A DNA stretch of 64,000 nt from Cymodocea nodosa (Eukaryota; Streptophyta; Magnoliopsida; Alismatales; Cymodoceaceae), in NCBI GenBank assembly GCA_036874045.1, contig CM072335.1, positions 11,614,001-11,678,000 on the forward strand, given 5' to 3'. The notes below the pieces were generated by a model that saw only the letters and a list, made by a program, of their open reading frames with translations, searched no databases and had not been told where the DNA came from. Positions 1-57,874 of the stretch are shown here, piece after piece. Every line of letters begins with the position of its first letter. The stretch's first letter is position 1. The position numbers and the translations under genes were made by a program.

Positions 1-938
1 TATATATTCAATAAGCTCTCTGTTGAATTACAGTTAACTCAACGGACAAAGTTCATTGAGTTATGGCTAACTCAATGGACTAACCTCGTGGACTTAAGTT
101 AACTCCACGAGCCTGTCTTTTCTTTTTAATACTGCTATTTACAAAGGAATTCAGCCAACCATTGGGCGATTCCACAAATTGTAAATAACATCAATTCAGC
201 TTTTTAATGTTAGTAAACATTGGATTTATCATTAAGCAATACTAACATTCAGATAATTCAAACAATAACTATTAAAATCTTTTGAACGAACCAATTTCAA
301 TAAACTATAAAACTAAAACAAACATAAAACAATCACAACACTGACAAAGATAACATTAATCACGATACAACACAAACAATACAACACTCAAATACAACAT
401 ACAACAAAGATAAATTATTTTTTTGGTATTTTTGTTTTAATATGAACATGGAAATGGGCGAAAGGTGAAATGTAAAGTAATCTCAGTTGACAGTAAATAC
501 TTCTATCACTACTTACAACGCGATTACACCACTAAAAATTAAACCACTTACAATCCTGTCTCCTCTCCCTATAGAATCGTGAGTCCAGAATTGTAAGATG
601 ATCTCCTCTTCAGCATACAGGCATCAACCCGAAGCCAAGGCTAAAAGCTTTACGATCTCCTAAAATATGAGTCGGCGCTTGGTGAAAATGGCTTCCCTTC
701 CCGCGACGCGATCACTCCTCACAACGGTTGTCAGGCACTGTGTTTGACTCAGAATCAACTCGACATCAAAATAGTATTCTCATAGACCTTCGATGGTTGG
801 TGATTGTAGTGGTGGTAACGATAGTTGGTGTGGTACTTTGGAGGATTGCCGATACTACTTGCAGAAAGCTCGGTGCTCCTCCTTTGTACACACTTGCTGT
901 CCATCGATCACACACACTTTTTTTCTTTTTCTTCTTCT

Positions 939-946
939 CTTTTATA
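939..946 (-). promoter_or_regulatory. Probable TATA box of the Athila LTR
   Basis: TATAAAAG on the minus strand, conserved at the matching place in the other two LTRs (46341-46348 and 59071-59078). It is a candidate core promoter for element transcription; no transcript evidence is available. Confidence 0.5.
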
Positions 947-1174
947 TTTCTTCAGTAGTAACTGCTTCTGCTTGAATGGTCGGTTGGATTTCCTTCATTC
1001 ATATCAACGGCGATGATTTCTTCTCCCTACGTGCTATGTGTAAATGTGATTTTTCTCTTCCAACTGTGTGTTCCTACAACCGCTATAGTGGCATATTAGA
1101 AAATAAATAGTCCGTGGAGTTACAGATAACTCAATGGACTTTCTTCGTTGATTTAACTATAAAACATATGCATA

Positions 1175-1345
1175 AATTTAACTATCCGATGCTCAGGTGC
1201 ATTTTGGATACTTACAAACTTAACTATCCGATGCTCAAATGCATTTCGAATAGTTACAAACTTAACTATCCGATACTCAGATGCATTTCGGATAGTTATA
1301 GACTTAACTATCCAATACTCAGATGCATTTCAGATAGTTACAGAT
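1175..1345. repeat. Four tandem copies of a ~41-bp imperfect palindrome in the LTR
   Basis: Each unit has AACTATCCGA and TCGGATAGTT flanking a short loop that often contains GATGC. The same palindrome recurs singly near 1445-1475 and 1585-1620. LTRs of element 2 carry only single copies (about 46715-46745 and 59440-59475), so the tandem expansion is private to this LTR. Confidence 0.8.
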
Positions 1346-1993
1346 AACTCACCGATATATAACTTAAATAAATCTACCAGATCTCGACACGTGTCAACAG
1401 CAGTTTAATCATAAAATAAACATTTCAGAGAGTTACAGAGCTAACTATCCGATGCTTAGATGCATTTCGGATAGTTAGAGATAACTCACCGAAAATCCAC
1501 TTAAGTCACTTTCCCAGAACATGACATGTGTCCTCAGCTATTTTATAAATAAAAAGAGATTTCAGAGAGTTACACATATAACTATCCGATGCCCAACTGC
1601 AATTTCGGATAGTTATAGATAACTCATCGAAAGTTCACTTAAGTCATGCATTATGGTTTAGACACGTGTACTTTAGGAAATAATAAAATATTCTTTCAAA
1701 ACATAACTGTTCGGAAATTTAAACATAACTATCCGACATGTTCGGTCTGTTAAACATAACTGTCCGAAATATCAGAAAATTCGGATACTTAAGAATTTTA
1801 CAGCCTACAACTTACCGACAGTTCAGAAATGTACTAAATTAACATTAATTCCCCAAAATTAAAAAAATTCTTTAATTAAAACATATAACAGTGCAATTAT
1901 AACATAATGGCTTAATTCTCATATGATAAGCTAAATATTATGCAATTAACCATCATTTAACCGTTAATAATATGCACTTTTTCATTTTAAGCA

Positions 1994-2005
1994 CTTCCCC
2001 CATAC
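1994..2005 (-). other. Polypurine tract of Athila-like element 1
   Basis: On the minus strand it reads ATGGGGGAAG, immediately upstream of the LTR start (TG at 1993). Element 2 has the same tract at 47126-47137. It would prime plus-strand DNA synthesis. Confidence 0.8.
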
Positions 2006-3752
2006 CTAAATTTTCCTAGTCCCTTAGCAAACTAAGATCTAATTAATTGGTCTTCTGAAAAATGCTAGAATTAATTCTTTTCCCCTTTTTTTTCTTCTGT
2101 TTAGCATAAAAATATATATAGATATTCTGTATGTTTCAGTAATCAACTTGCAAATAGACTTAGAATATATGCAAATTACATACAAAGTATATCATCATCA
2201 CATAGGTGTTAATTATATTATCATTTGTTCTTCTTTTCATCATCTACCATCCTAAATTTTCCAATAAGATTTCTAGAAGAAATTTCAACAACATACGAAT
2301 CAAAGTACAATCCAATTCAATATAATTAAGACAAGTAGAATAAAGAATTGTATCTCCCTTAAACAACTTCAAAAGTCAATTCTAGATTTATATTACAGCA
2401 ATTCTAGATAACAGAAAATATACTCGATTCATAAGATATCTATATTTCACAAAACAATTGTATCTTTTCAGAACAGTATATGTTTTTTTTTTTTTTCCAG
2501 TACTTTAAAAGTTAATTTGACAAGCTTGAATCATACAAGAGCTTTCTAATGTACCCATGTAACGAGCTTTCAATCAATAATCCCAGATCTGATCAGGATC
2601 TTAGGTTGCCAGATTTCAAGAGTCATTTTTCAGGTCAGCAATCCTTACATACCTATCTACTCAAGTACAAAAGGCTCGTGATCAAACAAGTTAATAAACT
2701 CTCAAAATTTTCCCTTTTTTTTTTCTTTTTTTCAATCAAACTACAAACACAAAACAAAACATTAATCACATACTGTATATGTATGTATTTCATTAATACA
2801 GATGCAGTAATCACCAATCTCATAAAGTCCTGCTTCTATCATTTACTATAAATATGAATCCATAACATTAAGCTCATACTTTTTCTATAGTTTAATAAGA
2901 TCTACACATAAATCATTCTACAAGTTCAATCAGTCAAATTAAATGTATCTTTAATCATATGTGTTTCATTTAATCTAGAATTCACATCTCAGCTCTTTTA
3001 GGACTTCAGATAATTTACTGATTTTTCATTAAGCATTCTGATTTCATTTTAAAATCGTGAAACTGTTAAACTCATGAAATTCAGAAAAAACATAAGATAC
3101 TATATCTAGATTTGCATAAATAGTAAATTCTATAGCATCTATATAGCCTTCTAAATATAACATTCAAGTAATTACAATTTATAAACATTTTACAGTCTCA
3201 ATTATCGGATAGTTACAGCAAGTTCATAAAAATTTTCAATTTCCTCAAAACTTTGGAGTACCATTTTAATTCCTTTAATTAACAAACTTACATGGCTATT
3301 ACTTTAATTACCTCCCCCCCATACCTACATTTTGTATTGTCCTCAATGTAAAAGATTTGACAATAAGTACCGTAGTTGTAGCAGGCATGAATACAGTTTT
3401 GTTGATTTAAAATTCAGGATAAGTAATTGGTTACATACCTTGTTTCGTTTGTATCTCCTTCTACATATTCTGATTTTTTGATTTTGAAAAACTTTTCATT
3501 CACAGATAAACATAGAATATAAAACAAAATAACATTTAACAGATATTAATAAATCAGTGTCTTGTGTGGAACCCAGGCTCCTATGCCTTTGGTGGCTCAC
3601 AAGCAAGCCAATTGGTTTCCCAAAACAGATACCTACAAACTAGATTGATATTTTTTTTTTTCTTTTATAAAATAAAAATGAAAACTTTAAAAAAATTTTT
3701 TTCTAAACATAAACATAGAATACACATAACATTAAACACACAAAATCACAAC
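2006..3752 (-). other. 3' untranslated region between F-box ORF and 3' LTR
   Basis: AT-rich and without a conserved long reading frame. About 2030-3400 is collinear, at roughly 60-90% identity, with the pol-to-ORF-X spacer of copia A (about 14340-15400 minus, 26460-27530 plus) and contains the strongly conserved block annotated separately. Short ORFs such as 2549-2851 plus are on the non-sense strand and broken by poly-T variation between copies. Confidence 0.7.
2536..2710 (-). other. Cross-superfamily conserved block with splice-donor-like site
   Basis: About 175 bp, near 90% identical by eye to blocks in copia A (14738-14915 minus, 26965-27145 plus) and in Athila element 2 (47666-47843). 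It has the same orientation relative to element sense in all four. On the sense strand it contains GATAG|GTATGTAAGG, a near-perfect plant 5' splice site (first intron base at 2652). It has no consistent open frame. Its role is unknown; a conserved splice donor or structured RNA is inferred. Confidence 0.75.
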
Positions 3753-4891
3753 TTAAGAATATGATTGAAAAGTAGGAACAAATGGAATAAATGTATCAGT
3801 CCAATCAAACTTTTTAGGCATAGTTCTTCTTGCTATTAATTCTATTTTAATGTAGTTCTTGTTCCTTGTTAATTTGTAAACATGTAATATATTATAAATT
3901 CTGAATACAAGTGTATTACCATTAATGATATGAAATGCAGAAAGGGATGCTTTTTGATTCCAAGGTAATGTAGCAGTTTCTATTTCTACATCTATTTCAA
4001 TATATTCCTCTTCCCACTTCCATTCATTTATGTCTTTCATAATCCATATTTGAAATTTCATCAATTCATCCCACCATCTTATCAGACATAAAGTAGGATC
4101 ATCTTCTTCATTATACCACATTCCTATTTGAATTTTATTAAATTCTTCAGATGGTGGTTTAGCTATTTCTCTCGGTATAGGTAAAATTTCTATATATTCA
4201 TCATAACTATCTATGCTCACTATGTATAAATCAGATCCAAACGCTATTAATATATCTGAGACTAGATATATATATCCATCAAGTATGACATGTGTTTGGT
4301 TAATTAATGATTTTCGTCCCAGATATATCATAATATTTTCATTCCAAGATCTATTCAAAAAGTTATACACACTTAAGTGTAAATCTTCATCCCAATTTCC
4401 TGTAGGTCTCCAATAATATAATTTTTCAGGAATTGTAGAATTTTTATCATAAAATATCAAAGTCGATCCACAATTTACAGTTGGTACTTCAAATCTATTA
4501 GGTTTCCTATATTCCATTCTTCTCCTGTTATAGGATTTCTTATCAAAATATCAGGTAATAATAAACTTGCATACCTTGGTCTCATCCTGTATATGATTAA
4601 TCCTTCATCTATCCCCATAATATGATCTATTCATTCTAATGTATTAGGTGGAATTCCAGTAGTTTCTTCCATAGCCAGATATTCATGGGTATTTGAACTA
4701 CGATTAAATGACCTCCATATAAATCCATCTCTAGTCTTAGTCACTTTTGTAGCTTGTAGTCCCTGAAAATATTTTTCTTCAATACAGTCTTTAATTTCCT
4801 TTGATACACAACACAGCCTGCATAGATCTTTAGCTGATAAATTACTCAATACTTCCCTTAGTGCATCCAATGGTAATTGCATCAATTCCAT
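3753..4891 (-). pseudogene. Captured F-box protein ORF, copy 1 (two lesions)
   Basis: About 380 codons. Residues about 5-45 form an F-box (LPLDALREVLSNLSAKDLC then RLCCVSKEIKDCI), the fold that binds SKP1 in SCF ubiquitin ligases. The rest resembles an F-box-associated beta-propeller-type domain: RNPITGEEWNI near residue 115, LYYWRPTGNW, HVILDGYIYLV, EWKWEEEYIEID and a C-terminal VYKL strand. The start is the ATG at 4891, conserved in copy 2. Lesions are an in-frame TGA at 4631-4633 and a one-base loss near 4505; the last 254 codons (4517-3753) are open. Copy 2 has different lesions, so the ancestral element probably carried an intact gene. It lies 189 bp after the Gag ORF and before the 3' UTR, inside the element. 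No introns are seen, consistent with capture through RNA. The substrate is unknown. Confidence 0.85.
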
Positions 4892-4958
4892 TTGTCGATT
4901 CTGTATAACACAAATAAAAATTTAACAGAGACAAAAATTAACATAACTACTACACACC

Positions 4959-5010
4959 TTCGTGGAGTTAAGGCATAACTCAATGAACTAAGTTCGTTGA
5001 GTTAAGGACT
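4959..5010. promoter_or_regulatory. Inverted TTGAGTTA/TAACTCAA module before F-box ORF
   Basis: Between the Gag stop and the F-box ATG lie CGTGGAGTTA, ATAACTCAATG and CGTTGAGTTA. The same cluster precedes the copy 2 F-box ORF (50097-50150) and occurs in the LTRs. It may be a promoter module or hairpin. On the sense strand a pyrimidine-rich stretch ending in TTTTTAG lies nearby (about 5024-5040), a possible splice acceptor. Function is inferred only. Confidence 0.45.
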
Positions 5011-5080
5011 AGCTCTACGATACTATTAACTAAAAATAAAAACATATATACATACAGATAGTTGCTTCAATTATACTACT

Positions 5081-6268
5081 TCATTCAGCTACCCTCCTAG
5101 AAGAGGTATCAATTTCATTAACAGATCTATTGACAGGGTTAGGTATTGCTTGTATTGGCAATCCTCCAATAGGTCTAACTTCCATTGGTTCCTTCCGTCT
5201 AAGTGGTATATTTCTATTCTGATTTTGAATTGCAGCATTTCCAAATACAAAATCTAGACGATTGTTTAATTGTTGGATTATCTTTTCTAATTTCTCTATT
5301 CTAGATCCTTGTTCAATTAATGCTTCATAACTTATGTTCGTCTCATTTATATTTTCTCCTCCTTGGAAATTATTGTTTTTCCGAGATAAATTTGGGTGAT
5401 TTCTCCAATTAGGATTATAAGAATTTCCCAAGTTATCTCTCTAGTTTCTAGCATAAATAATATCTAAGTCATTTATGTTTGCATTCTTTTCTGCTAGCTT
5501 TTGATTTAATGATAACTCTTCTATTTTCTTTGTTAATTCAGTTAATTTCACTTCAAGCATAGTACTTGAATCTATTTCATGCATTCCTCTTGGCAATTTT
5601 TTATTATCTACAATAGCTTCACCTGAGTTTTCCCACTATGCAGTTCTTTTTGCAAAGTTTTCTAAATATGCCCATGCTTCTTCACTACATAACTTTAAAA
5701 ATCCATTTTGACAAGTAGATTCTAATAAAGATTTTGTTGAAACATCTATGCCTTCATAAATTATACCTATTAATTGTGCCTTACTCATTGCATGATGTGG
5801 ACATTGAGTCAATAAATCTTTAAATCTTTCAAAATATTTCCAGAATGATTCACCCTATTTTTGGCTACACATTAATATTTATTTCTTCTTTTTAATCGTT
5901 TGATGTGTTGGATAATATTTTTCTAGAAAAATAGAGCAAAATTCAGTCCATGTAGAAATTGAATCAGGCGATAGAGTATATAACCATCTCTTAGCTGTGT
6001 CTTCTAAAGAAAAAGGGATATATCTAAGTTTAATAGCATCTATACTCATGTTCGGCATTTTCATCATTTGACAAACTTCATTAAATTCTCTAAGGAAATA
6101 ATAGGCATCCTCTCTTTCTAATCCATGAAAATGTGGCAATTGACTAATATAATTAGATTTCAGTTCAAACCTATCTCCCTCAAAGTTTGGCAATCGAATA
6201 CATGAAGGTTCATCAACTAATTCAGGATACAAAATCTCTCCTAATGGTTTTCCTACTAGAGCAGCCAT
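5081..6268 (-). pseudogene. gag: Athila-type Gag capsid ORF located 3' of pol, copy 1
   Basis: Starts at the ATG at 6268 (MAALVGKPLGEI). Residues about 70-200 match the retrotransposon Gag capsid family as seen in Athila: AKRWLYTLSPDSISTWTEF, then FLEKYYPTHQT, GESFWKYFERFKDLL and TQCPHH. The C-terminal part (5431-5081) has the Athila-like NPNWRNHPNLS motif followed by a coiled coil. Lesions are a stop at 5879-5881 and further stops between 5880 and 5430. No CCHC zinc knuckle is visible. Gag normally precedes protease and pol; here it follows integrase and ORF-X. Copy 2 has the same placement (51407-50220), so the position predates both copies. Confidence 0.85.
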
Positions 6269-7362
6269 TTCTGCGTTCTCTTTTAAAGAAAGGTTAGCTA
6301 CACCCTAAAGAATTTCGTTAAAGTTCAGTTCAGAAAATTTTTCAGTACTCCTCTACGATGAAAATTCCTGGGTAGGTGTTCTTACTAATCATTTAGTGCT
6401 TAGAGAACAGGTCCATGTGCTCATAAATAAATATCAAAAGATTAATTACATACCAGTCTGAAGCTTTCCATTCAATAAATATTTGTTGTCGGATGAAGTT
6501 GAATCAGCTGCTTCTCCTTTCAGGTCCTCCAACGCATTCTCCTTTCTTTTAAAAGTGCTGGTAACTCGTAAATAATATTCTGTTTTATATATATAATGCA
6601 CATCCATAAAGTGAATAAATCTCGTTGCAAGAATGTGTCTTGCAACGTGCATCATGGTTCCTGTTTTTATGGGTACGTGTACCACTACTAATTTCAAATT
6701 TTGGTAACCGCTAAACCAACGAAGTTTCGTTTATGGTTAAAAAAATAACTGTTCTGCTTAATCCACGAACTAACCTCATTGAGCTACAGATAACTCAATG
6801 GAACAAAGTCAGTTACTGTTGCTAACTCCACGGACTAACTTCGTTACTCAACGGAGTGACCTTATATTATATTACTAACCTCGTGGAGTTACGTTTAACT
6901 CAACGGACTTACTTCGTTGAGTTAACACTTAGCAACTTCTAAGTTTTACTCTCGTAAGTTCCTCTCTACTTTTTTTTCTTTTTCATTCTGCTTAACTGAA
7001 ATAAAGTTAAATCTATGTCATTAATGCATCATTCTAATCAAAATTCGTTTAAATCTGAACATTATATAGAGATTTAACTTGTAGGTCATTTTATGTTATG
7101 TAGAATTTACATTTTACCTTGCAACATGCAGAAATTTTTAAGCATTTATCCTATCATTCAGCAAAGTGTAAATCTATTAAACATTAATTCATAATCTTCC
7201 ACAAAATATATATAACATTCAATACATTCCATTCATTTTCACATCCAAAACACGTATGAAAATTGCATTTGAAAAATTTACATTCATTAATATGATCAAT
7301 TTACAGTATAAGTACATCATACAATTTCATACAATTTTATACAAGTAGACGAACAATATAAG
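6269..7362 (-). other. Leader between ORF-X and Gag, with motif cluster
   Basis: Contains paired CGTTGAGTTA / TAACTCAACG motifs at about 6765-6935, a TATATATAAAA-type box on the minus strand (about 6582-6594) and a splice-donor-like CTG|GTATGTAAT near 6455. This is consistent with a separate promoter and leader for the downstream Gag ORF. The 83-codon ORF at 6697-6446 is disrupted in copy 2, so I do not call it a gene. Confidence 0.45.
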
Positions 7363-9570
7363 TTAATCTCTATTCCTTAGTTCATCTACTTTCTTCTGGA
7401 GTTTTTCTAATTGAAGCTCTAATTGATTAATCCTTTCTATTGCTCCTGTAATTCCTCTAGAAGGTATAGCTAGTTCTGCTGCTACAAAATTTCTATATTC
7501 TTTCACTGAAATTGTTCTAGATCTGATCCTTTTTGATGTCCATTTAGTGAAATCGATATAGTCCACCATCAGTAGTGGAATCAAATCTCCATAAAACAAT
7601 TTCTTCTTCACTATTCTCAGCTTGGAGATAAAAATTGCAGATCAATTTATTTGAATCTTATTTACTACCGCATATGAGGCCCATTTGACAAATTGACTAA
7701 ATTCTATGTCATGGCCTTGTCGTTGATAGACAGTCTTAATCAGAATGTTAGCTACCATGTGTACTTTACCATTTAAATGCTTCAATCTGTTTAATGAAGG
7801 CACACTAGGATTGATAGCTAAACAATCCTTAATTTGCTGTTCTGTCCACTCGACTACAGTTGTATCTTCCAAAATTTTTATTCCTTCACTCTTTAAACCA
7901 AAAATGTTGTGGAGAAGCTCTAGTGTTATTTGTACATCAACTTCCTCCACGTTTGAAATTAATCCTCCTTCTCTTTCTCTTAAATTTACATAAGAACAAG
8001 GCACTAAATTCTCATAAATTGCATGCCCTCTTTCTTGAGAAATGAATTGCAGTAGACCTTGGAATTCAAATAAATCTTTGATTTCTTGCATTCCATCCCA
8101 ATTTACTGGTCTACTATAAATAATGTCATAACCCCTTATTTTTTAGTATTTGGTATAAGCTTCCTGACTACAAAAATGTACTTCATTCAAAATTGTTGTT
8201 TCAATTGGGTCAGGAAGGTGACTTTGTTGTTCCAGAGGTGTTTATTCTTGCTCTTCCTCTTCTATAGGTTGCATTTGAACATTTTCTACAGATTCCTGAA
8301 TTCTTGTTTCTATTTGTGGTGGTGAGTCAGTGGAACTCTCCACTCTGTCTTGAATTCTCTCCATAAATTGCTGAAGAGTTTTCTACTCTTCAATGGAATC
8401 TGTGAAATTATTTTTGCCCAAATGGCTTCTTTTAGCCTCTTCATTTTCTGCTCTTTCTTCTTCCTCCTGACCACCAATCTGTTGTATTACTATTCTTTCT
8501 GATTCTATAACAGGTTGGGATGGAGTCACGGGCAATTCAGTTTCTGCCCTAATTTCTATTCTTTCTTCTTGTACAGGCTGCAGACTAATTTCAGCCCGAT
8601 TTTCTTCTTATCTTTTCTCCTACTACTGTAGCTCCTCCTGCTCCTCAGAATCAGATAGCAGGTTTATAAAAATTTGCTCCACAGGCCCTGTGAAAATTGG
8701 TATTTCAGATTTAATTTCCTCAATTTCAAGCACTTTTTCTTTTCCTTTCTTTTTTTCTGATTAATTGTGTTTGTTCTTCCTCTTCTTCTTTTGAAATTAA
8801 ATCTATAAAAGTAGGCTCTACAGGCCTTCGAGCCACAGGTATTTGCTCTTCCTATTTAATTCTCTTCATAAATGCTGGTCTCAAAGGACCAGCCTCTCCT
8901 GCAGCACTTGATTTAGTTGCTGCTTGATGTTGTTCAAATTTTATTTTGTATTGGGCCCTTATCTTTTCTTCGACCCTTTTTTTCTTAATGGCATCATATA
9001 AAATATGTGCCTTAGCCGTAGCTATTTCTTGAGTATCACCTTGGTCTCTTGCTATTTTAACCAAGCTAGTAAATTCTTTCTCTTCTTCTTCAATTCTCGG
9101 CAAAGCAAAAGCTACTTGTGGCAATGGCTCTATTGGCTGAACTAGAGGTCCTGACTGTTGTTCCTCAGGAATAGGTCCTTCAGCAATTGGTTCCTCCTGT
9201 TCTCTTGCTCGTTGCTGCTCCCATATTGCCCAGCTTCCTCAACCAGCAATGCGTTTCTTAAACCACAATCTAGCTTTACGTTGAATTAGCTTTAGGGCTA
9301 CTTCATTGTTTGGCCGGATTTTTCTTTCTTTACTTACTACAATTTCAGTTTCCACTCTAATTTGTGTCTCCATTATTTGTGATATTTGTATTTCTAATTC
9401 AACCAAAACTTTTCTCAAGTTAAAGAGTTTTGATTCTACCTTTTGTAGCTCTTTCTCTCTTGTTGTATTTCGGATCTTTTGCCGCGTGTGTCATTCTTCA
9501 GATTCCTTCAGAAACTATGCGGTGTCCACTGCATCTTCCCAGAATTCAAGCGTCATCTTCCTCATCATGG
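7363..9570 (-). pseudogene. ORF-X of Athila-like element (putative plant transposon protein)
   Basis: A long broken frame. The N-terminal part has a coiled coil and the WFKKRI motif; the middle is very rich in Glu and Gln (9124-8852 and beyond); the C-terminal part, 8091-7642 (EIKDLFEFQGLLQF ... GHDIEFSQF ... NKIQIN), is the recognisable conserved domain, resembling proteins annotated as putative plant transposon protein (PF20167-like; not searched). After an in-frame TGA at 7642-7644 the homology continues as KKKLFYGDL and a terminal coiled coil ending at 7363. Homologues are in copia A (28038-30294) and copia B (42413-43250). Position after pol matches that of env-like genes, but I see no signal peptide or membrane segments. 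The start is uncertain because several stops lie near 9200-9570. Confidence 0.7.
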
Positions 9571-10135
9571 AGTTACACAATAGCATGGAATCGCTTTGAT
9601 TTCTACTGTTCTAGATTCTAAATGATTTGTCGGATAATGCCCCCAAAACCCTAGGTTTTAGTTTAAATAAGCCCTAAGTTTAGGCGGGTAATCGGGTCAT
9701 TTGCGGAACCAACTATTACTATTTTATCCACGGTCTTAGCTATAGTACTTCGTTGAGTTATAGTTAACTCAATGGAATAAGCTTGTTGACTAACTCAAGA
9801 CTCAACGGAGTAAGCTCGTTGAGTTAAGCGTAACTCAACGGACTCCTTGTACAAACAGATATAATAATAAAAATACTACAGATAATAGTTTTCTTTTTTT
9901 TTTTACCGGTTTAATCGATACTATGTTTCAGTCAAACCTAATTTTTTTTCTAGTTGAACTGATACTATGCTTTGGTAAAACCAACATTTTTTCTGAAAAT
10001 TAATATTTCCTATTTTTTTATGTTCCAATCATACCGATGGATCCAATTAGTTGAACTGCAATGATTTTTATATTTTATATATTTTTTTAATGTTTTTTTT
10101 TATACAAATATATAAACATAAAAACTAATTTCTTA
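9571..10135 (-). promoter_or_regulatory. Spacer between pol and ORF-X with inverted motif cluster
   Basis: Paired motifs CGTTGAGTTA, AACTCAACGGA and CGTTGAGTTAAG lie at about 9745-9845, followed by repeated CCGATACTATG(C/T)TT(C/T)GGT segments at 9905-10005 that are tandemly duplicated in element 2. There is no reading frame. The layout resembles the clusters in front of the Gag and F-box ORFs and in the LTRs, so this may be the ORF-X promoter. Confidence 0.45.
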
Positions 10136-12940
10136 CTAAGTAAAGCTCGAGTAGTCCTCTACTCTGACTTCTTCTATAATTCCGAAGGAGCTTTTTGGTG
10201 TTCTCAGAATAGGTCTAAGTCTTTGTCCATTTACTTTAAATATATTCTAATTTTTAAGATTTTCAATTTCAATAGCTCCATAAGGATAAATATTTCGAAC
10301 TATGTAAAGTCCTGCCCATCTAGATCTTAATTTTCCTAGATGGTTATGAAGTCTAGCCATATAAAGATATACTTCTTGTCCTATTTCAAAGCTTTTTGGA
10401 ATAATTTTTCTATCATGCCAGAAATTCATTTTCTCTTTTTCTCTTACTATCTTCGAATAAGCTTCATTTCTAAATTCTTCTAATTCAATTAATTGCATTT
10501 TTCTATTTTCAACAGCTTGATTTAAATTAGTGTTCAGAGTTTTTAATGCCCAATAAGCTTTATGTTCTATTTCAACTAGTAAATGACAACATTTTCTATA
10601 TATTAGCCTAAAAGGTGACATACCTAAGCTCATTTTATAAGCAGTTCTATAAGCCCAAAGTGCATCTATCAATCTATTAGCCTAATCTGTTCTAGTAGGA
10701 TTTACTACTTTTTCTAAGATTAACTTAATTTTTTTGTTTGCACTTTCTACTTGTCCACTTGTTTGCGGATGATATGATGTTGCAATTTTGTGGTTTACTC
10801 CATATTTCTTCATTAAGGCTTCAAAACTTCTATTACAGAAATGAGTTCCTCTATCACTGATAATAGCTTTAGGTATTCCAAATCTGGCAAATATATTTGT
10901 TCTTATAAATTGTATTACCACTTTGTTGTCATTAGTTTTTGTAGGAATAGCTTCTATCCATTTAGATACATAATCCACCCCCAATAATATGTAATTAAAT
11001 TGATTAGACATAGGAAATGGACCCATAAAATCTATTCCCCACACATCAAAGATTTCAACCTCAACAATAGGATTAAGAGGCATCATATTCCTCTTTGATA
11101 TTCTTCCTATTTGTTGACATCTTAAACAACTTAAGCAATATTTATGAGCATCTTTGAATAGTGTTGGCCAATAAAACCCACATTGCAGAATTTTTGCAGT
11201 AGTTTTCCTTGAACCAAAATGCCCTCCACAAGCTTAGTCATGATAGAAAGACAATATGCTCGGATATTCAGTTTTTGGAACACACCTCCTTAAAACCAGA
11301 TCAGGACATTTCTTAAATAAGTATGGGTCTTCCCAATAGTAATATTTTACTCTTGAGAAAAATAATTTCTTATCCTGTCTATTCCAATCTTTAGGTGTTA
11401 GACTAGTAACTAAGTAATTAACTATGTTTGCATATCAAGGTATTGTGTTGATGGTCATTAATTGTTCATTAGGAAAATTATCCTTAATTTCAATATTTGA
11501 TTTTTCTATTTGTAATATTGATAAATGATCTGCTACTACATTCTCACAACTTTTTTTATCTTTAATTTCTAGATCAAATTCTTGCAATAATAATACCCAT
11601 CGGATCAATCTAGGTTTAGTTTCTTTTTTCTTTATTAGATGTTTTAGAGCTGAATGATCCGTATATACTATTACTTTAGCTCCAATCAGATATGATCTAA
11701 ACTTTTCTAAAGCAAACACAACAGCTAATAATTCTTTTTCAGTAGTTGTGTAATTAACTTGAACATCATTTAAGGTTTTGCTTGCATAATGAATCACTCT
11801 AGCAGATTTTTCTATCTTCTGTCCCAACACTGCTCCTACAGCAAAATCAGAAGCATCGCAAATTAATTCAAATGGATAGTTCCAATTAGGTGCTTGAATT
11901 ATAGGAGTAGAAATTAAGCTAGTCTTAAGTCTAAAAAATGCTTCCTTGTAATTTTTATCAAAGTTAAATGGAACATCTTTTAATAGATTAGTTAAAAGTC
12001 TAGCTGTCTTGCTAAAGTCTTTAATAAATCTTCTATAAAAACCAGCATGTCCTAGAAATGATCTAATATCTTTTACTAATTTAGGTTCTGGTAGATTAGA
12101 AATTACTTCTATTTTAGCTTTATTTACTTCCAACCCTTTCTTAGAAAAAACATGCCCTAAGACTATTTCTTGTTTAACCATGATGTGACATTTTTCCCAA
12201 TTTAAAACCAAATTTTTTTCCACACAACGTTTTAATATTAGGTCTAAATTTTTTAAATAGACTTCATATGAGTTGCCATATATAGTAAAATCATCCATAA
12301 ATATTTCTAGAAAATCTTCAGTCATTCCAGTAAATATGCCTTGCATACACCTTTGGAAGGTAGTTGGCGCATTGCATAATCCGAATGGCATTCTCTTAAA
12401 AGCATAAGTTCCATTAAGACAGGTGAAAGTTGTTTTCTCTTGATCCTCTAATGCTACTAGAATTTGATTATACCCTGAATACCTGTCTAGGAAACAAAAA
12501 TATTCTTGCCCTGCTAATCTTTCCAGCATTTGATCTATAAAAGGTAAGGGAAAATGATCTTTCCTAGTCACAACATTCAGCTTTCTATAGTCTATACATA
12601 CTCTCCAGCCTAATTGAATTCTAGTAGGTATCATGTCTTGACTTTCATTCCTAATAACTATTAATCTTGATTTCTTGGGAACTACATGGATTGGACTAAC
12701 CCACGAGCTATCAGAAATCGAATAAATTATGTCATTATCTAACCATTTAACTATTTCCTTCCTAACTACTTCTTTAAGGTTTGGATTTAATCTCCTCTCA
12801 GGAATTCTAATAGGTTTAGCATTCTCTTCTAAATATATATGGTGATAGCATAAAGTTGAACTTAACCCTTTTATATCAATCATAGTCCATCCTATTGCTT
12901 CTTTATAACTTTTTACTACATCTTTTAATTTAGCTATTTG
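10136..12940 (-). pseudogene. pol: Athila-type pol: reverse transcriptase, RNase H, integrase
   Basis: RT occupies 12883 to about 12050: [18 protein letters not shown] and the catalytic box [10 protein letters not shown] (an FMDD variant of YMDD). RNase H follows ([39 protein letters not shown]). Integrase spans about 11300-10247: the HHCC-type zinc site (11300-11090 region), then the DDE core with D in [10 protein letters not shown] in ISDRGTHF and E in SGQVESANK. The C-terminal part (10672-10247) ends VEDYSSFT at the stop 10136-10138. Breaks include stops near 11434, 11235 and 10681. The upstream protease is missing because the element is cut at 12940. Confidence 0.92.
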
Positions 12941-12944
12941 AAAT

Positions 12945-18085: not shown

Positions 18086-18087
18086 CT

Positions 18088-45195: not shown

Positions 45196-47125
45196 TGTTT
45201 GGTTTTTCCCAGCACTACACTAAAAAAACTTGGATTTGTTACTTCTATTTTTACTTAGTTAATTTATCTTTATGCCTATTCTTTCTTTTAGAAGTAAACA
45301 AAAAACCTTTAATACATTTAGATATTAATTCCAATTTGTACTTTAACTACAAGTGCATAGTGTCTATTGTATCATTGTGCAAGTATAGGTCGATCCTATA
45401 GGGAATTGCTGACGAATTTAAGAAATGTTTGATTATGAACAATTCAAATTTATATTCAATAAGCACTCCGTTGAGTTACAGTTAACTCAATGGACTATCC
45501 TCGTGGACTTAAGTTAACTCCACGAGCCTATCTCTTCTTTATAATACTGCTATTTACAAAGGAATTCGGCCAACCATTGGGTGATTCCACAGATTGTAAA
45601 TAACATCAATTAAGCTTTTTAATGCTAGTTAACATTGGATTTATCATTAAGCAATACTAGCATTCAGATGATTCAAACAGTCACCATTAAAATCTTTAAG
45701 TTTTTTGTACGAACCAATTGCAGTAAACTGTAAAATTAAAACTAACATAAAACAATCATAAAATTGATATAGATAACATTAATCACGATACAACACTCAA
45801 ATACAACATACAAACAAAGATAAATTGTTTTTGGTATTTTTGTTTTGATGTGAATATGGAAATGGGCGAAAAGTGAAATGTAAAGTAATCTCACTTGACA
45901 GTAAATACTTCTGACACTACTTGCAACGCGATTACACCACTGAAAATTAAACCACTTACAATTCTGTCTCCTCTCCCTATAGAATCGCAAGTCCAGAATT
46001 GCAAGATGATCTCCTCTTCAACATACAGGCATCAACCTGAAGCCAAGGCTAAAAGCTTTACGATCTCCTAAAATATGAGTCGGCGCTTGGTGAAAATGTC
46101 TTCCCTTCCCGCGACACGATCACTCCTCATAGTGGTTGTCAAGCACTGTGTTTGGCTCGGAATCGACCCGACATCAGGCAAGTATCCTCACAGACCTCCG
46201 ATGATTGGTGATTATGGTGGTGATAACGATGGTTGGTGTGATACTTCGGAGAATCGTCGATACTGTCTGTAGAAAGCTCGGTGCTCCTCCACTGTATACA
46301 CTAGCCGTCCATCGATCACACCTTCTTTTTTTCTTCTTTTCTTTTATATTTCTTCAGTAGTAACTGCTTTTGCTTGAATGATCGATTGGATTTCCTTCCT
46401 TCAGATCAACGGCGATGCTTCCTTCTCCATGCGTGATTGAATTCCTGCGTGATACGTGCAAATGTGGTTTTTCCTTCCAACTGTCTGTTCCTACAACCGC
46501 TACAGTGGCATTTTAGAAAATAACTATAAAATACATGCAATAAAGAAATAAGCCGCTAACCTAATGCGTTACCTTAGTATATATTCATGTAATTCAATGC
46601 GTACAGTTATGCTAACTTAACGAGTTATAACTTAAGTAAATCTACCAACTCTCGACACGTGTCAACAGTAGTTTAAACATAAAATAACATTTCGAAGAGT
46701 TACAAGTATAACTATCCGATGCTTAAATGCATTTTCGGATAGTTACAGCTAACTCACCGAAAATTCACTTAAGACATTCATTCTGGTTTTGACATGTGTA
46801 CATCTGGAAATAATAAAATATTCTCTCTAAACATAACTGTTCGGCAATTTAAACATAACTATCTGATACATATTCGGTCTGTTAAACATAACTGTCTGAA
46901 ATATTAGAAAATTCAGATACATAAGAATTTCATAGCCTGCAACTTACCGACAGTTCATAAATGTATTAAATTAACATTAATTCCCCAAAATTAAGCAGAT
47001 TCTTCAATTAAAGCATATAATAGTGCAATTATAACATAATGGCTTAATTCTCATATGATAAGCTAAATATTATGCAATTAACCATCATTTAACCGTTAAT
47101 AATATGCACTTTTTCATTCTAAACA
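45196..47125 (-). repeat. 3' LTR of Athila-like element 2
   Basis: 1930 bp. TATA-like TATAAAAG on the minus strand at 46341-46348. One fewer inverted AACTCAACGGA module than the 5' LTR (near 45470-45510). Confidence 0.95.
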
Positions 47126-47137
47126 CTTCCCCCATAC
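47126..47137 (-). other. Polypurine tract of Athila-like element 2
   Basis: GGTATGGGGGAAG on the minus strand, adjoining the 3' LTR. Confidence 0.85.
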
Positions 47138-48889
47138 CTAAATTTTGCTAGTCCCTTAGCAAACTAAGATCTAATTAATTGGTCTTTCAAAAAGTGCTAG
47201 AATTAATTCTTCCCCTTTTGTTTTTTTTTCTTCTGTTCAGCATAAACATATATTCTGTATGTTTCAGTAATCAACCTGCAAAGATATTTAGAATATATGT
47301 AAATTACTTACAAAGTATATCATCTTCATATAGGTGTTAATTATATTATCATTTGTTCTTCTTTTCATCATCTGTAATCCTGAATTTTCCAATAAGTTTT
47401 CTAGAAGAAATTTCAACAACATACGAATCAAAGTACAATCCAATTCAATCTGATTAAGACAAGTAGAATAAAGAATTGTATTTCCATTAAACAACTTCAA
47501 AAGTCAATTCCAGATTCATATTTCAGCAATTCTAGATAACAGAAAATATACTCGATTCATAAGATATCTGTATTCCAAAAATACTTGTATCTTTTCAGAA
47601 CAGTATATGTTTTTTTCTTTTCTTTTTTTTGTGTACTTTAAAAGTTAATTTGACAAGCTTGAATCATACAAGAGCTTTCTAATGTACCCATGTAACGAGC
47701 TTTCAGTCAACAATCCCAGATCTGATCAAGATCTTAGGTTGCTAGATTTTCAGAGTCCTTTTTCAGGTCAACAATCCTTACATACCTATCTGCTCAAGTA
47801 CAAAAGGCTCGTGATCAAATAAGTCAATAAACTCTCAAAATTTTCCCCCTTTTTTTTTTTTTTTTTAAATACACACAAAACAAAACATTAATCACATACT
47901 ATATGTGTACATATTTCATTAATACAGATGCAGTAAAACACCAATCTCATATAATCCTGCTTCTATCATTTACTAAAAATATGAATCCATAACAATAAGC
48001 TCATACTTTATCTGTAGTTTAATAAGATCTACACATAAATCATTATACAAGTTCAATCAATCAAAGTAAATGTATCTTTCTTTCATCATATGTGTTTCAT
48101 TTAATCTAGAATTCACATCTCAGCTCCTTCAGGACTTCAGATAATTTTCTAATTAAGCATTAAATATTCTGATTTCATTTTAAAATCGTGAAATTGTTAA
48201 ACTCATGAAATTCAGAAAAATCATAAGATACTATATCTAGATTTACATAAATAATAAATTCTATAGCATCTTCTATAACCTTCTAAATATAACATTCAAG
48301 CAATTTATAAAAATTTTACAGTCTCAATTATCGGATAGTTACAACAAGTTCATAAAAATTTTCAATTTCCTCAAAACTTTGCAGTACCATTTTAATTCCT
48401 TTAATTAACAAACTTACATGGCTGTTACTTTAATTACCTCCCGCCCATACCTACATTTTGCATTGTCCTCAATGTAAAAGATTTGACAATAAGTACAGTA
48501 ATTGTAGCAGGCATGAATAAAGTTTTATTTGATTTAAAATTCAGGATAAGTAATTGGTTACATACCTTGTTCCATTTGTATCTCTTTCTGCATATTTCGA
48601 TTTTTGATTCTAAAAAACTTTTCATTCCTAGATAAATACAAAATATAAAACAAAATAACATTTAACAGATATTAATAAATCAGTGTCTTGTGTGGAACCC
48701 AGGCTTCTATGCCTTTGGTGGCTCACAAGCAAGCTAGTTGGTTTCCGAGAACAGATACCAACAAACTGGATTGATATTTTGTTTTGATTGTTTTTTTTTT
48801 TATAAAATGAACATGAAAAACTTCAAAATTCCTTCTTTTTTTTTTTAAATAAATGCAGAATACACACGTGAAACACACAAAATCACAAC
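47138..48889 (-). other. 3' UTR of Athila-like element 2
   Basis: Collinear with 2006-3752. Carries the cross-superfamily block at 47666-47843. No conserved ORF; ORFs at 47500-47288 and 48661-48434 are not shared as frames with element 1. Confidence 0.7.
47666..47843 (-). other. Cross-superfamily conserved block (Athila element 2)
   Basis: Splice-donor-like GATAG|GTATGTAAGG on the minus strand, first intron base at 47785, as in the other three copies. Confidence 0.75.
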
Positions 48890-50028
48890 TTAAGAACATG
48901 ATTGAAAAGTAGAAACAAATGGAATAAATGTATCAGTCCAAGCAAACTTTTTAGGCATAGTTCTTCTTGCTATTAATTTTGTTTTAATGCAGTTCTTGTT
49001 CCTTTTAATTTGTAAACATGCAATATATTATAAATTCCAAATACGAGGGTATTACCATTAATGATATGTAATGCAGAAAGGGATCCTTTCTAGTTCTAGG
49101 GTAATGTAGTAGTTTCTATTTCTACATCTATTTCAATATACTCCTCTTCCCACTTCCATTCATTTATGTCTTCCATAATCCATATTTGAAATTTCATCAG
49201 TTCATCCTACCATCTTATCAGACATAAAGTAGGATCATCTTCTTCATTATATCACATTCCTATTTGAATTTCATTAAATTCTGTAGATGGTGGTTTAGCT
49301 ATTTCACTCGGTACAGGTAAAATTTCTATATATTCATCATAATTGTCTATGCTCACTATGTATAAATTAGATCCATATGCTAATGATATCTCCGTGACTA
49401 AATAGATATATCCATCAAGTATGACATGTGTTTGGTTAATTAATGATTTCTGTCCTAGGTATATTATATTATTTTCATTCCAAGATCTGTTTAGAAAATT
49501 ATACACACTTAAGTGTAAATCTTCACCCCAATTTCCTGTAGGTCTCCAATAATATAATTTTTCAGAAATTGCAGAATTTTTTTCAGAAAATATTAAAGTT
49601 GACCCAAAATTTATAGTTGGTGCTTCAAATCTATTAGGTCTTCCTATATTCCATTCTTCTCCTGTTATAGGATTTCTTACCAAAATATCAGGTAATGATA
49701 AACTTGCATACCTTGGTCTTGTCTTGTATATGATTAATCCTTCATCTATCCCCATAATATGACTCATTCCTTCTAATGCATTGGGTGGAATTCCAGTAGT
49801 TTCTTCCATAGCCAGATATTCATGGGTATTTGAACTACGATTAAATGACCTCCATATGAATCCATCTCTAATCTTAGTCATTTTTGCAGCTTGTAGTCCC
49901 TAAAAATATTTTTCTTCAATACAGTCTTTAATTTCCTTTGATACACAATATAGCCTGCATAGATCTTTAGCTGACAAGTTACTTAGTACTTCCCTTAGTG
50001 CATCCATTGGTAATTGCATCAATTCCAT
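48890..50028 (-). pseudogene. Captured F-box protein ORF, copy 2
   Basis: ATG at 50028 (MELMQLPMDALREVLSNLSA). The F-box helices are present (CVSKEIKDCI), followed by a stop at about 49900 (after EKYF). The longest open piece, 49881-49252, spans most of the associated domain (RNPITGEEWNIGRPNRF, HVILDGYIYLVTEI). More stops come after residue ~260. Roughly 90% identical by eye to copy 1, but its lesions are at different places. The start, stop and neighbours (Gag upstream, 3' UTR downstream) are the same. Confidence 0.85.
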
Positions 50029-50096
50029 TTGTCAATTTTATAAAACATAAACAAAAATTTCGTAGAGACAAAAATTAACCTAACTACTGCACACCC

Positions 50097-50150
50097 TCGT
50101 GGAGTTAAGGCATAACTCAACGGACTAAGTTCGTTGAGTTAAAAATTAAC
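50097..50150. promoter_or_regulatory. Inverted motif module before F-box ORF, copy 2
   Basis: CGTGGAGTTA, ATAACTCAACGGA and CGTTGAGTTA in the 190-bp gap between Gag stop and F-box ATG. Confidence 0.45.
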
Positions 50151-50219
50151 TCTACGATACTATTAACTAAAAATAAAAATATATATATACATACAGACAG
50201 TTGCTTCAGATATGCTACT

Positions 50220-51407
50220 TCATTCAGCTGCCCTCCCAGAAGAGGTATCAATTTCATTAACCGTTCTATTGACAGGATTAGGTATAGCTTGTATTGGCAA
50301 TCCTCCAGTAGGTCTAACTTTCATTGGTTCCTTCTATCTAAGTGATATATTTCTATTCCGATTTTGAATTGCAGCATTTCCAAATATAAATTCTAGACAA
50401 TTGTTTACTTATTGGATTATCTTTTCTAATTTCTCTATTCTAGCTCCTTGTTCAATTAATACTTCATAACTTATGTTTTTCTCATTTATATTTTCTCCTC
50501 CCTGGAAATTGTTGTTTCTCCAAGATAAATTCGGGTGATTTCTCCAATTAGGATGATAAGAATTTCCCAAGTTATCTCTCTAGTTTCTAGCATAAATAAT
50601 ATCTAAGTCATTTATGTTTGCATTCTTTTCCGCTAGCTTTTGATTTAATGATAACTCTTCTATTTTCTTTGTTAATTCGTTTAATTTCACCTCAAGCATA
50701 GTATTGGAATCTATTTCATGCATTCCTCTTGGCAATATTCTTTTATCTGCAATAGCTTCAGCCAAATTTTCCCACTGTGTACTTCTTTTTGCAAAGTTTT
50801 CTAAATATGCCCATGCTTCTTCACTACACAATTTTAAAAATCCATTTTGACAAGTAGATTCTAATAAAGATTTCGTTGAAACATCTATGCCTTCATAAAT
50901 TATACCTATTAATTGTGCTTTACTCATTGCATGATGTGGACATTGAGTCAGTAAATCTTTAAATCTTTCAAAATATTTCCAAAATGATTCACCCTGTTTT
51001 TGGCTACACATTAATATTTCTTTCTTCTTTTTAATCGTTTGATGTGTTGGATAATATTTTTCCAGAAAAATAGAGCAAAATTCAGTCCATGTAGAAATTG
51101 AATTAGGCGACAGAGTATATAACCATCTCTTAGCTGTATCTTTTAAAGCAAAAGGGATATATCTAAGTTTAATAGCATCTATACTCATGTTCGACATTCT
51201 CATCATTTGACAAACTTCGTTAAATTCTCTAAGGAAATAATAGGCATCCTCTCTTTCTAATCCATGAAAATGTGGCAATTGACTAATATAATTAGATTTC
51301 AGTTCAAACCTATCTCCCTCAAAGTTTGGCAATCGAATACATGAAGGTTCATCAATTAATTCAAGATACAGAATCTCTCCTAATGGTTTTTCTACTAGAG
51401 CAGCCAT
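50220..51407 (-). pseudogene. gag: Athila-type Gag capsid ORF 3' of pol, copy 2
   Basis: Open for 275 codons from ATG 51407: CIRLPNFEGDRFELKSNYI, DTAKRWLYTLSPNSIS, FLEKYYPTHQTIKKKKEI, QGESFWKYFERFKDLL, SKAQLIGIIYEGID and a C-terminal coiled coil. One TAG (50580-50582) separates it from the NPNWRNHPNLS-type tail, which runs in the same frame with more stops to 50220. No CCHC motif is found; the only one in the element is in the ORF upstream of protease (57789-56776). Best-preserved Gag of the window. Confidence 0.9.
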
Positions 51408-52509
51408 CTCTACATTCTCTTTTAAAGAAAGATTAGCTACACCCCAAAGAATTTCGTTAAAGTTCAGTTCAGAAAATTTTTTAGTACTCCTCTACAATGA
51501 AAATTCCTAGGTAGGTGTTCTTACTAATCGTTTAGTGCTTAGGGAACGAGTCCATGTGCTCATAAATAAATAACAGAAGATTAATTACATACTAGTCTGA
51601 AGCTTTCCATTCTATAAATATTTGTTGTCGGATGAAGGTTGAATCAGCTACTTCTTCTTCCAGTTCCTCCAACGCTTTCTCCTTTCTTTTAAAAGTGCTG
51701 GTAACTCATAAATAACATTCTGTTTCATATATATATTGCTCATCCATAAAGTGAATAAATCTCGTTGCAAGAACGTGGCTTGCAACGTGCATCGTGGTTC
51801 CTGTTTTTATGGGTATGTGTACCACTACTAATTTCAAATTTTGGTAACCACTAAACCGACGAATTTTCATTTGTGGTTAAAAGAATAACCGTTCTGCTTA
51901 ATCCACGAACTAACCTGGTTGAGTTACAGAAAACTCAACAAAACACAGTCAGTTACTGTTGCTAACTCCACGGACTAACTTCGTTGAGTTATAGATAACT
52001 CAACGGAGTGACCTTATATTATATTACTGACCTCGTGGAGTTACGGTTAACTCAACGAACTAACTTCGTTGAGTTAACACTTGGCAACTTCTAAGTTTCA
52101 CTCTCGTAAGTTTTCTATTCTATTTTTTTTTCTTTGTTTTTCATTCTGCTAACTGTAATAAAGTTAAATCTATGTCATTAATGCCTCATTTTGATTAAAA
52201 TACATTTAAATCTGAGCATTATATAAAGATTTAACTTGCAGGTCATTTTACGTTATGCAGAATTTACATTTTACCTTATAACACAGAAATTTTTTAAGCA
52301 GTTATCCTATCATTCAGCAAATTGTAAATCTGTTACATATTCATAAGGTTCCACAAATTACATAATATTCAATAAATTCCATTCATTTCACATCCAAATA
52401 CGTATGAAAATTGCATCTGAAAAATTATATTCATTAATATGAATCAATTACATTACAAGTACACCATACAATTTCATACAATTTTACACAAGTAGACGAA
52501 CAATACAAT
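51408..52509 (-). other. Gag leader of element 2
   Basis: Paired CGTTGAGTTA / TAACTCAACG motifs at about 51915-52085, as at 6765-6935. AT-rich sequence to 52509 contains nothing else I recognise. Confidence 0.45.
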
Positions 52510-52560
52510 TTAATCTCTATGCCTAAATTCATCTACTTCCTTTTGGAGTTTTTCTAATTT
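52510..52560 (-). pseudogene. ORF-X C-terminal scar
   Basis: The last ~17 codons of ORF-X (KLEKLQKEVDEF) remain. The preceding ~2.3 kb found in element 1 (7415-9725) is deleted, and the upstream promoter-like spacer follows directly at 52561. Confidence 0.85.
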
Positions 52561-53121
52561 TAGGTCTTAGCTGCAGTACTCCGTTGAGTTACAGTTAACT
52601 CAACAGAATAAGCTCGTTAACTAACTCAAGACTTAACGGAGTATGCTCATTGAGTTCAGCGTAACTCAACGGACTCCGTACAAGCAAATATAATAATAAA
52701 AATATTATAGAGAATAGTTTTTCTATTTTTTTACCGATTTAACCGATACTATGCTTCGGTCAGACCTAAATATTTTTTATTTTTTTTATTTTTCTTTCGG
52801 TTGGACCGATACTATGTTTCGGTAAAACCAATATTTTTTTCTGAAGATTAATATACATTTTTTTGCCAGTTTAACCAATACTATGCTTCGGTCAGACCTA
52901 AATATTTTTTATTTTTTTATTTTTCTTTTGGTAGGACCGATACTATGTTTCGGTAAAACCAATATTTTTTTCTGAAAATTAATATACAATTTTTTTTAAT
53001 GTTCTGGTCATACCGATGGATCTAGTCGGTTAAACCACAACTATTTTTATGTTTTATATATATTTTTAATCTTTTTTTTTTTTTTAAACATATATATATA
53101 AACATAAAAACTGATTTCTTA
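52561..53121 (-). promoter_or_regulatory. Post-pol spacer with motif cluster and 132-bp duplication
   Basis: AACTCAAC-type inverted motifs at about 52580-52675. Two tandem ~132-bp units (about 52732-52995) each contain CGATACTATG(C/T)TTCGGT twice; element 1 has one unit. Confidence 0.6.
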
Positions 53122-55869: not shown

Positions 55870-55884
55870 AGTCCATCCTATTGC

Positions 55885-56220
55885 TTATTTATAACTTTTT
55901 ACTACATCTTTTAATTTAGTTATTTGATCCTCTTTTAAATCTGAAGCAATAATGACTGGATAGGTTCGTTTATCTTCCAGAAATATATAGGTTAATTCAG
56001 GAGGAAAAAGTTTTAATACAAAATGCTGCCCATTAGAAGCTAGAGCTCCTAATTGAATATCATCATTTTTTAAATTAATTTCTTCCTGATCTCCTTCTAT
56101 ATTTATGCTTTCACTTTCTTCTAAAGTTTCAGAATTGATTTGCCTATTTAATTCTTCTTGAATCACATCATCTAACATATCTCCTTCATCCTCTAAAAAG
56201 TCTATGGTATGTAAGGACAT
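55885..56220 (-). pseudogene. Pol linker between protease and RT
   Basis: Acidic segment with LPPELTYIFLED-like FPPELTYIFLEDKRTYPVII, the usual Athila link between protease and RT. One stop separates it from RT. Confidence 0.85.
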
Positions 56221-56259
56221 TTGTAACTCCTCAAACCTTTCTGGTTTGAAAATATTTAA

Positions 56260-56772
56260 TTAAGTATCCTCATTACCATATGCTAACTTCATTACTCCAA
56301 TTTTACAATTTATAATAGCCCTTGATGTTGCTAAAAATGACCTTCCCAAAATTAAAGATGTATCACTATTTTTATGTTTAATTTGTTGGGAATCCAAAAT
56401 TACAATATCAATAGGATATATAAAATTCTTGATTTTAATTAAGACATCCTCTATTTTTCCTCTAGGGTATCTTATACTTCTATCAGCTAATTGAATAACC
56501 ATACTAGTAGGAGTTATTCCTTCTAATCCTAAGGATGCAAATATATCACTTGGCATAACATTTATACCTGCACCTAAGTCTATTAAAGTTCTTTCTAGAA
56601 TGGTATTTCCTATGGTGCATGATATAACAGGGATTCTAGGATCAGATAACTTTTTAGGAATTTGTGGCAGAAATAGGGAACTACTTTGCTCAGCTAAAAA
56701 GACCTTTCTAAGAACTTTTCGCTCTCTTTTCTTAGTACACCAATCCTTCAGAAATTTAGCACAATGTGGCAT
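56260..56772 (-). pseudogene. Athila-type aspartic protease
   Basis: RIPVISCTIGNTILERTLID then LGAGINVMPSDIF: the catalytic Asp is present in DLGAG, where DTGA/DSGA is usual. ILGRSFLATSRAIINCKIG is the flap-side conserved block. It is separated by single stops from the ORFs on both sides, so it was part of one polyprotein. Confidence 0.9.
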
Positions 56773-56775
56773 ATT

Positions 56776-57789: not shown

Positions 57790-57850
57790 ACAACTCTAGC
57801 TATTAAAACTAAACAACTCTAACAGTTACTTATATTAATTCAATTCAATT

Positions 57851-57867: not shown

Positions 57868-57874
57868 TAAAACT

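What the first reader, a model, noticed from the sequence alone, without database searches (positions are those of the whole stretch)
3753..4891. F-box protein gene carried inside an Athila-like retrotransposon, in two copies
An F-box plus F-box-associated domain ORF lies between the element's Gag ORF and its 3' UTR in both copies (also 48890-50028). Start, stop and neighbours match, and the lesions differ. Seen directly: F-box consensus and RNPITGEEW-type propeller motifs. Known: F-box proteins select substrates for SCF ubiquitin ligases, and one plant virus protein (polerovirus P0) uses an F-box to destroy AGO1. Inference: the element may have used a captured F-box protein against host silencing or another target.
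Basis: partly seen in the sequence, partly recalled or inferred. Interest (0 to 1): 0.88.

Follow-up and report, generated by a model that had tools for sequence, protein, structure and literature searches.

The report
F-box gene inside a plant retrotransposon
Two separately inserted copies of a plant jumping gene each carry, near their far end, a decayed gene for an F-box protein (a host-type protein that marks others for destruction), so the element copied this gene along with itself, but what the protein did is not known.

Summary
An F-box domain (PF00646, E 2.7e-11) starts a reading frame of about 379 codons at the same place in two Ty3/gypsy elements. Element B (45196-59855, minus strand) is bounded by LTRs and a 5-bp target duplication, with an empty-site paralogue nearby; copy A lacks its 5' part. 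LTRs of A and B differ by 12.6-12.8%, B's own two by 5.5%, so these are separate insertions. No lesion is shared, so their common source had an open frame. No insertion boundaries around the F-box were found. It lies 3' of pol, where plant elements carry extra ORFs, behind a capsid Gag ORF that oddly also sits 3' of integrase. Evidence for selection is weak: raw dN/dS 0.36, but counts split by transition and transversion are not significant (nor for Gag or RT), and overall divergence equals that of the 3' non-coding stretch. The anti-silencing idea is untested. The window's genome did not answer in nine tries, so other copies and a host parent could not be sought there. Gene capture by plant LTR elements is known; an F-box in this role did not appear in nine paper searches. 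New variant of a known kind.

The parts
3753..4891 (-). F-box ORF, copy A (broken: one premature stop, one single-base frameshift)
   Evidence: PF00646 43.3 bits on 4634-4891; FBA_1 below cutoff on 3756-4517
48890..50028 (-). F-box ORF, copy B (broken: five premature stops, one single-base frameshift)
   Evidence: differs from copy A at 7.5% of sites
45196..59855 (-). complete element B, 14.66 kb
   Evidence: TSD AGTGC at 45191-45195 and 59856-59860; empty-site paralogue at 62572-63105
57875..59855 (-). 5' LTR of element B
   Evidence: 5.5% different from the 3' LTR
45196..47125 (-). 3' LTR of element B
57850..57867 (-). primer-binding site, tRNA-Asp type (tRNA identity recalled)
   Evidence: sequence read, 7 nt inside the 5' LTR end
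47126..47138 (-). polypurine tract
   Evidence: read
56263..57795 (-). gag C-terminal remnant without a capsid match (label from recalled motifs) and protease, element B
   Evidence: no Retrotrans_gag match on 56779-57789; PF13650 Asp_protease_2 E 2.2e-05 on 56263-56775
53122..55927 (-). RT, RNase H and integrase, element B
   Evidence: PF00078, PF17917, PF17921, PF00665
50220..51407 (-). Gag (capsid) ORF placed 3' of integrase, element B (broken)
   Evidence: PF03732 E 6.7e-21 on 50583-51407
1..12941 (-). copy A, from its 3' LTR (about 1-1993, cut by the window edge) to RT; its 5' part is missing
5081..6268 (-). Gag ORF 3' of integrase, copy A (broken)
7366..9490 (-). extra ORF region ('ORFx', broken) between integrase and Gag in copy A; A 7413-9731 is absent from B (joint 52559/52563)
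   Evidence: 32% identity over 110 aa, E 9e-17, to an ORF at 29608-29937 +
4956..5022 (.). palindromic hairpin unit just upstream of the F-box start, copy A
   Evidence: (z -2.4)
50097..50157 (.). same hairpin unit, copy B
   Evidence: (z -4.4)

Best explanation
An Athila-like Ty3/gypsy retrotransposon lineage acquired an F-box-type protein gene downstream of pol, in the position where such elements carry extra sense ORFs, and replicated it as part of itself. Shown: the F-box ORF lies inside a bounded element, at the same place in two separate insertions, and their common source had an open frame. Inferred: while the element was active the ORF was made as its own cistron (a hairpin unit also found in the LTR stands just before it), and the protein joined the host's SKP1-CUL1 ligase through its F-box and used its C-terminal part to bind some host or element protein. 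The likeliest benefit is removal of a host factor that limits the element; the target is unknown. Both copies here are dead.
For: F-box domain at E 2.7e-11. TSD, LTRs, PBS, purine tract and empty-site paralogue for B. A's LTR differs from B's two by 12.8% and 12.6%, B's LTRs from each other by 5.5%. 0 shared lesions among 6 premature stops and 2 frameshifts. Indels: F-box 2 in 1138 sites, internal non-coding 26 in 3055, p 0.017; transversions 17/1138 vs 87/3055, p 0.014, and like Gag+pol at 55/4189, p 0.66. Raw dN/dS 0.36 (bootstrap 0.22-0.59; 2.3% of 1000 neutral simulations as low), near Gag at 0.34; wrong frames 0.63 and 0.81, 3' non-coding pseudoframes 0.53-0.57. Hairpin unit: 19 places in elements A and B, 6 in LTRs and 13 in the gaps before ORFx, Gag and F-box, 0 in coding parts or in the stretch 3' of the F-box.
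Against: Only two copies, both broken. Overall A-B divergence of the F-box (7.5%) equals that of the 3' non-coding stretch (7.7%) and exceeds Gag and INT-RT (both 5.5%). With homopolymers left out, the indel and transversion contrasts weaken (p 0.055 and 0.10). Counts split by transition and transversion do not depart from neutral (p 0.07 and 1.0). Beyond the first 45 codons raw dN/dS is 0.42, P 0.068. RT-RH gives 0.63, so the test has little power. No transcript, intact copy, host parent or SKP1 data. FBA below cutoff. The structure model was useless (mean pLDDT 35).
Confidence: 0.55

Rival explanations
1. Passenger capture: the F-box gene was transduced by chance (template switching onto a host mRNA or read-through) and carried for a few cycles without any use, as captured genes in plant LTR elements can be.
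For: [quoted passage not shown] Selection tests here are not conclusive, and overall divergence equals that of the 3' non-coding stretch. Outside homopolymers the F-box has 2 indels in 1080 sites, Gag+pol 1 in 3672; with homopolymers in, the difference is not significant (p 0.2).
Against: The frame was open in the common source although A and B LTRs had diverged beyond B's own LTR distance. If as free as neighbouring DNA, about 7.9 indels outside homopolymers would be expected; 2 were seen (P 0.015).
Confidence: 0.35
2. The element is a chimera: the 3' block (capsid Gag plus F-box) comes from another, non-autonomous element joined by template switching to a pol-bearing one, and the F-box served that other element.
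For: Capsid Gag lies 3' of integrase in both copies while B's 5' gag has no capsid match. Hairpin units also found in the LTRs stand at each module boundary.
Against: No LTR similarity of 150 bp or more appears between pol and Gag. Both copies share the order, so any join is older than both and was propagated. This rival is compatible with the best explanation.
Confidence: 0.3
3. Assembly or segmental-duplication artefact: one damaged locus duplicated, not two elements.
For: Both copies lie within 64 kb, with 5S rDNA and a large inverted duplication between them.
Against: A-B LTR distance is more than twice the distance between B's LTRs. B has its own TSD and empty-site paralogue. B lacks 2.3 kb that A has.
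Confidence: 0.04

Closest known systems
[quoted passage not shown] PMC7264820 part 1 of 3)
   Same: Position and sense orientation 3' of pol; thought to be acquired from different sources.
   Different: 'F-box' does not occur in either main text. That survey removed elements with domains in unexpected order, as this one has.
AlkB-type RNA demethylase ORF in Phalaenopsis Gypsy elements (PMC9289625: abstract, one section, word search)
   Same: A host-type regulatory protein fixed as an extra ORF in a plant Ty3/gypsy lineage, proposed to act on host control.
   Different: Active in vitro and found in 38 and 23 consensus sequences; here an F-box protein, two dead copies, no assay.
Polerovirus P0, an F-box silencing suppressor (PMC11371168 passages)
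   Same: A genetic parasite of plants with an F-box that plugs into SCF.
   Different: P0 promotes AGO1 degradation; target unknown here; sequence relation not tested.
[quoted passage not shown]
   Same: Host-type gene carried by an LTR element.
   Different: Not compared here by sequence; the captured-gene lists are in supplements not seen, so F-box genes may be among them.
LTR-linked F-box gene in Thlaspi arvense (PMC8764390 passages); nematode F-box genes with a captured transposase domain (PMC12062965 passages)
   Same: F-box genes and mobile elements joined.
   Different: A host gene family expanded by, or fused with, elements; the passages do not describe an F-box ORF as a resident part of an element lineage.

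Membership tests
F-box protein | N-terminal F-box domain above the curated cutoff | tested here: met
   PF00646 43.3 bits vs 20.5
F-box protein | Binding to SKP1/ASK | not testable with these tools
   needs an assay
F-box/FBA subfamily | C-terminal FBA domain above the curated cutoff | tested here: inconclusive
   FBA_1 14.8 vs 21.1 bits, E 0.026, on A; no family on the B piece; no PDB match with one sequence or a two-row profile
LTR retrotransposon (element B) | paired LTRs with TG..CA ends, TSD, PBS, purine tract | tested here: met
Ty3/gypsy | domain order protease, RT, RNase H, integrase | tested here: met
Ty3/gypsy | capsid Gag 5' of protease | tested here: not met
   in B the only Retrotrans_gag match lies 3' of integrase; the 5' gag piece has none. 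A's 5' part is not in the window. A displaced part, not a reason to doubt the RT/INT assignment
Athila lineage | RT/RH/INT phylogeny within Athila; no second RNase H; sense extra ORF 3' of pol; non-Met PBS | tested here: inconclusive
   PBS and extra ORFs fit; Athila ORF-1 did not match the ORFx pieces scanned; no reference RTs in reach for a tree
Element-encoded silencing suppressor | reduces host RNA silencing or AGO level | not testable with these tools
   needs an assay

The most novel reading that the evidence does not exclude
A plant Ty3/gypsy lineage kept its own SCF adaptor: the F-box protein, expressed as a separate 3' cistron, steers the host ubiquitin ligase to destroy a factor that silences or restricts the element, a retrotransposon parallel to polerovirus P0 made from a full host-type F-box protein.
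Probability: 0.15. Interest if true: 0.85.

Novelty: new variant of a known kind. Interest (0 to 1): 0.6.

Why it matters
Few proteins are known by which plant retrotransposons act on host control. An element that carries its own substrate selector for ubiquitin ligases would offer a direct test: find what it binds. Even as a passenger it shows a whole host-type regulatory gene riding in the extra-ORF slot, in an element whose capsid gene lies behind integrase.

Tried and rejected
Structure prediction of the 254-aa piece alone gave mean pLDDT 35 and was not used for a fold search. Protein searches with two F-box pieces gave no hit (533 candidates at E 0.001; 76 at E 0.01); Gag gave 3 relatives at 51-54% identity without a named organism. 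Scans of viral contigs with the FBA piece, Gag and RT, and of genome contigs with RT, gave 6, 8, 0 and 19 pattern matches, none a relative. Segmental duplication of one insertion was rejected on LTR distances. A separate insertion of the F-box was looked for and not seen. A processed-mRNA origin (an A-run about 100 nt after the stop) was considered and dropped as too weak in AT-rich DNA. An earlier count gave the hairpin split as 7 and 12; the output gives 6 in LTRs and 13 in gaps.

Full report
Anatomy. Self-comparison of the window shows two related elements on the minus strand. Element B is complete: LTRs at 57875-59855 and 45196-47125, ends TGTT..AACA, target duplication AGTGC on both sides, a PBS of tRNA-Asp type (identity recalled) 7 nt inside the 5' LTR, and a purine tract before the 3' LTR. 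A paralogous repeat at 62572-63105 shows the empty site. From 5' to 3' its inside reads: a gag remnant (label from recalled motifs) without capsid match, protease, RT, RNase H, integrase, a capsid Gag ORF, the F-box ORF, 1.76 kb without a clear ORF, and the 3' LTR. Copy A is cut by the window edge inside its 3' LTR and stops at 12941 in RT, where it meets sequence that I take for copia-type from recalled motifs. It has the same order plus 2.3 kb (7413-9731) with most of an extra ORF, absent from B; the joint lies inside the last ORFx piece, which points to a deletion in B.

The F-box ORF. The N-terminal 86 residues of copy A match the F-box model at 43.3 bits, E 2.7e-11; the 254-residue remainder touches FBA_1 below the cutoff, and a 209-residue piece of B matches no family. 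PDB searches found nothing for the C-terminal part and only marginal F-box matches for the N-terminal part (best E 0.51). A and B differ at 7.5% of sites and by two single-base gaps. A has one premature stop and one frameshift, B five stops and one frameshift; none is shared.

Two insertions. The 3' LTR of A differs from B's two LTRs by 12.8% and 12.6%, while B's LTRs differ by 5.5%. A duplication of B after insertion would put A nearer to B's 3' LTR than B's LTRs are to each other. So the block was carried through separate retrotranspositions from a source with an open F-box frame.

Selection. Raw Nei-Gojobori dN/dS is 0.36 for the F-box ORF (bootstrap 0.22-0.59; 2.3% of 1000 neutral simulations as low), 0.09 for its first 45 codons (7 differences only), 0.42 for the rest (P 0.068), 0.34 for Gag (P 0.019) and 0.63 for RT-RH (P 0.68); 3' non-coding pseudoframes give 0.53-0.57 and wrong frames of the F-box 0.63 and 0.81. 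Integrase was not tested. Split by class, F-box transitions are 29 synonymous and 39 nonsynonymous (p 0.07) and transversions 2 and 15 (p 1.0); Gag and RT are not significant either. Part of the difference arose after insertion, when no selection is expected. By region, indels are 2/1138 in the F-box vs 26/3055 in internal non-coding DNA (p 0.017) and transversions 17/1138 vs 87/3055 (p 0.014); without homopolymers p 0.055 and 0.10. Against this, overall divergence of the F-box (7.5%) equals the 3' non-coding stretch (7.7%) and exceeds Gag and INT-RT (5.5%). I read this as weak support for constraint, weaker than for Gag and pol.

Expression. A palindromic unit of 29 bp occurs 28 times in the window at 9 or fewer mismatches, against a mean of 0.1 in 10 simulations. 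Of the 19 in A and B, 6 are in LTRs and 13 in the gaps before ORFx, Gag and F-box; none is in coding parts or 3' of the F-box. The 8 stretches folded as RNA, chosen for holding the unit, were all more stable than the mean of their shuffles (z -2.4 to -6.1). The units may be signals for separate cistrons, or sites where modules were joined; nothing here decides.

Literature. Plant Ty3/gypsy elements often carry extra ORFs 3' of pol. In one survey the extra-ORF proteins of Ty3/gypsy fell into 314 groups, 21.4% of extra-ORF proteins (Ty1/copia included) resembled known domains, and elements with unexpected domain order were removed (PMC6317226, passages). A screen of 121 angiosperm genomes found 15 unusual domains; the section read names nine, none an F-box, and 'F-box' does not occur in its main text (PMC9289625: abstract, one section, word search). 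'F-box' is also absent from the main texts of PMC7264820 (part 1 of 3 read), PMC13317346, PMC11963269, PMC3726574, PMC6317226 and PMC5408684, all seen as passages otherwise. PMC8764390 mentions an 'LTR-gene' of the F-box family in Thlaspi (passages), and PMC3852528 lists 10 F-box sequences among sunflower repeats (passages), so F-box genes linked to repeats are on record. Nine paper searches showed no F-box ORF as a resident part of a plant LTR lineage; of most papers I saw only the listing, several lists were cut, and supplements and subscription papers were not seen. P0 of poleroviruses as an F-box suppressor is described in PMC11371168 (passages).

Limits. The species is unknown, the window's genome did not answer in nine tries, and the protein search returned only three Gag relatives and no F-box relative, so other copies and the host parent remain unsought or unfound.

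Noticed in passing
35-110, 6758-6931, 9744-9860, 58149-58240 and others: A palindromic unit around TAACTCAACGGACTAAGTTCGTTGAGTTA recurs in LTRs and in the gaps before the 3' ORFs of both elements, and at 9 further places at 18977-19950, 30710-31332 and 37836-37932.
   Followed up: partly
50220-51407 and 5081-6268: The capsid Gag ORF lies 3' of integrase in both copies, while B's 5' gag piece has no capsid match.
   Followed up: partly
7645-8142 and 29608-29937: The extra ORF of gypsy element A and an ORF beside genes that look copia-type (recalled motifs) are related: 32% over 110 aa, E 9e-17. Two element classes may share an extra ORF.
   Followed up: partly
2503-2961, 14705-15135, 26736-27166, 47636-48075: A block of about 430 bp in the gypsy elements' 3' stretch occurs also inside the inverted duplication (first 210 bp 89-92% identical, the rest 76-79%).
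   Followed up: no
31601-36728: Tandem 5S rRNA genes, most about 500 bp apart, 8 Rfam matches on the minus strand.
   Followed up: no
12950-28915: Large inverted duplication, arms 95-96% alike.
   Followed up: no
45196-47125 and 57875-59855: B's two LTRs differ by one 33-bp hairpin unit among 4 indels, so the units can be gained or lost.
   Followed up: no
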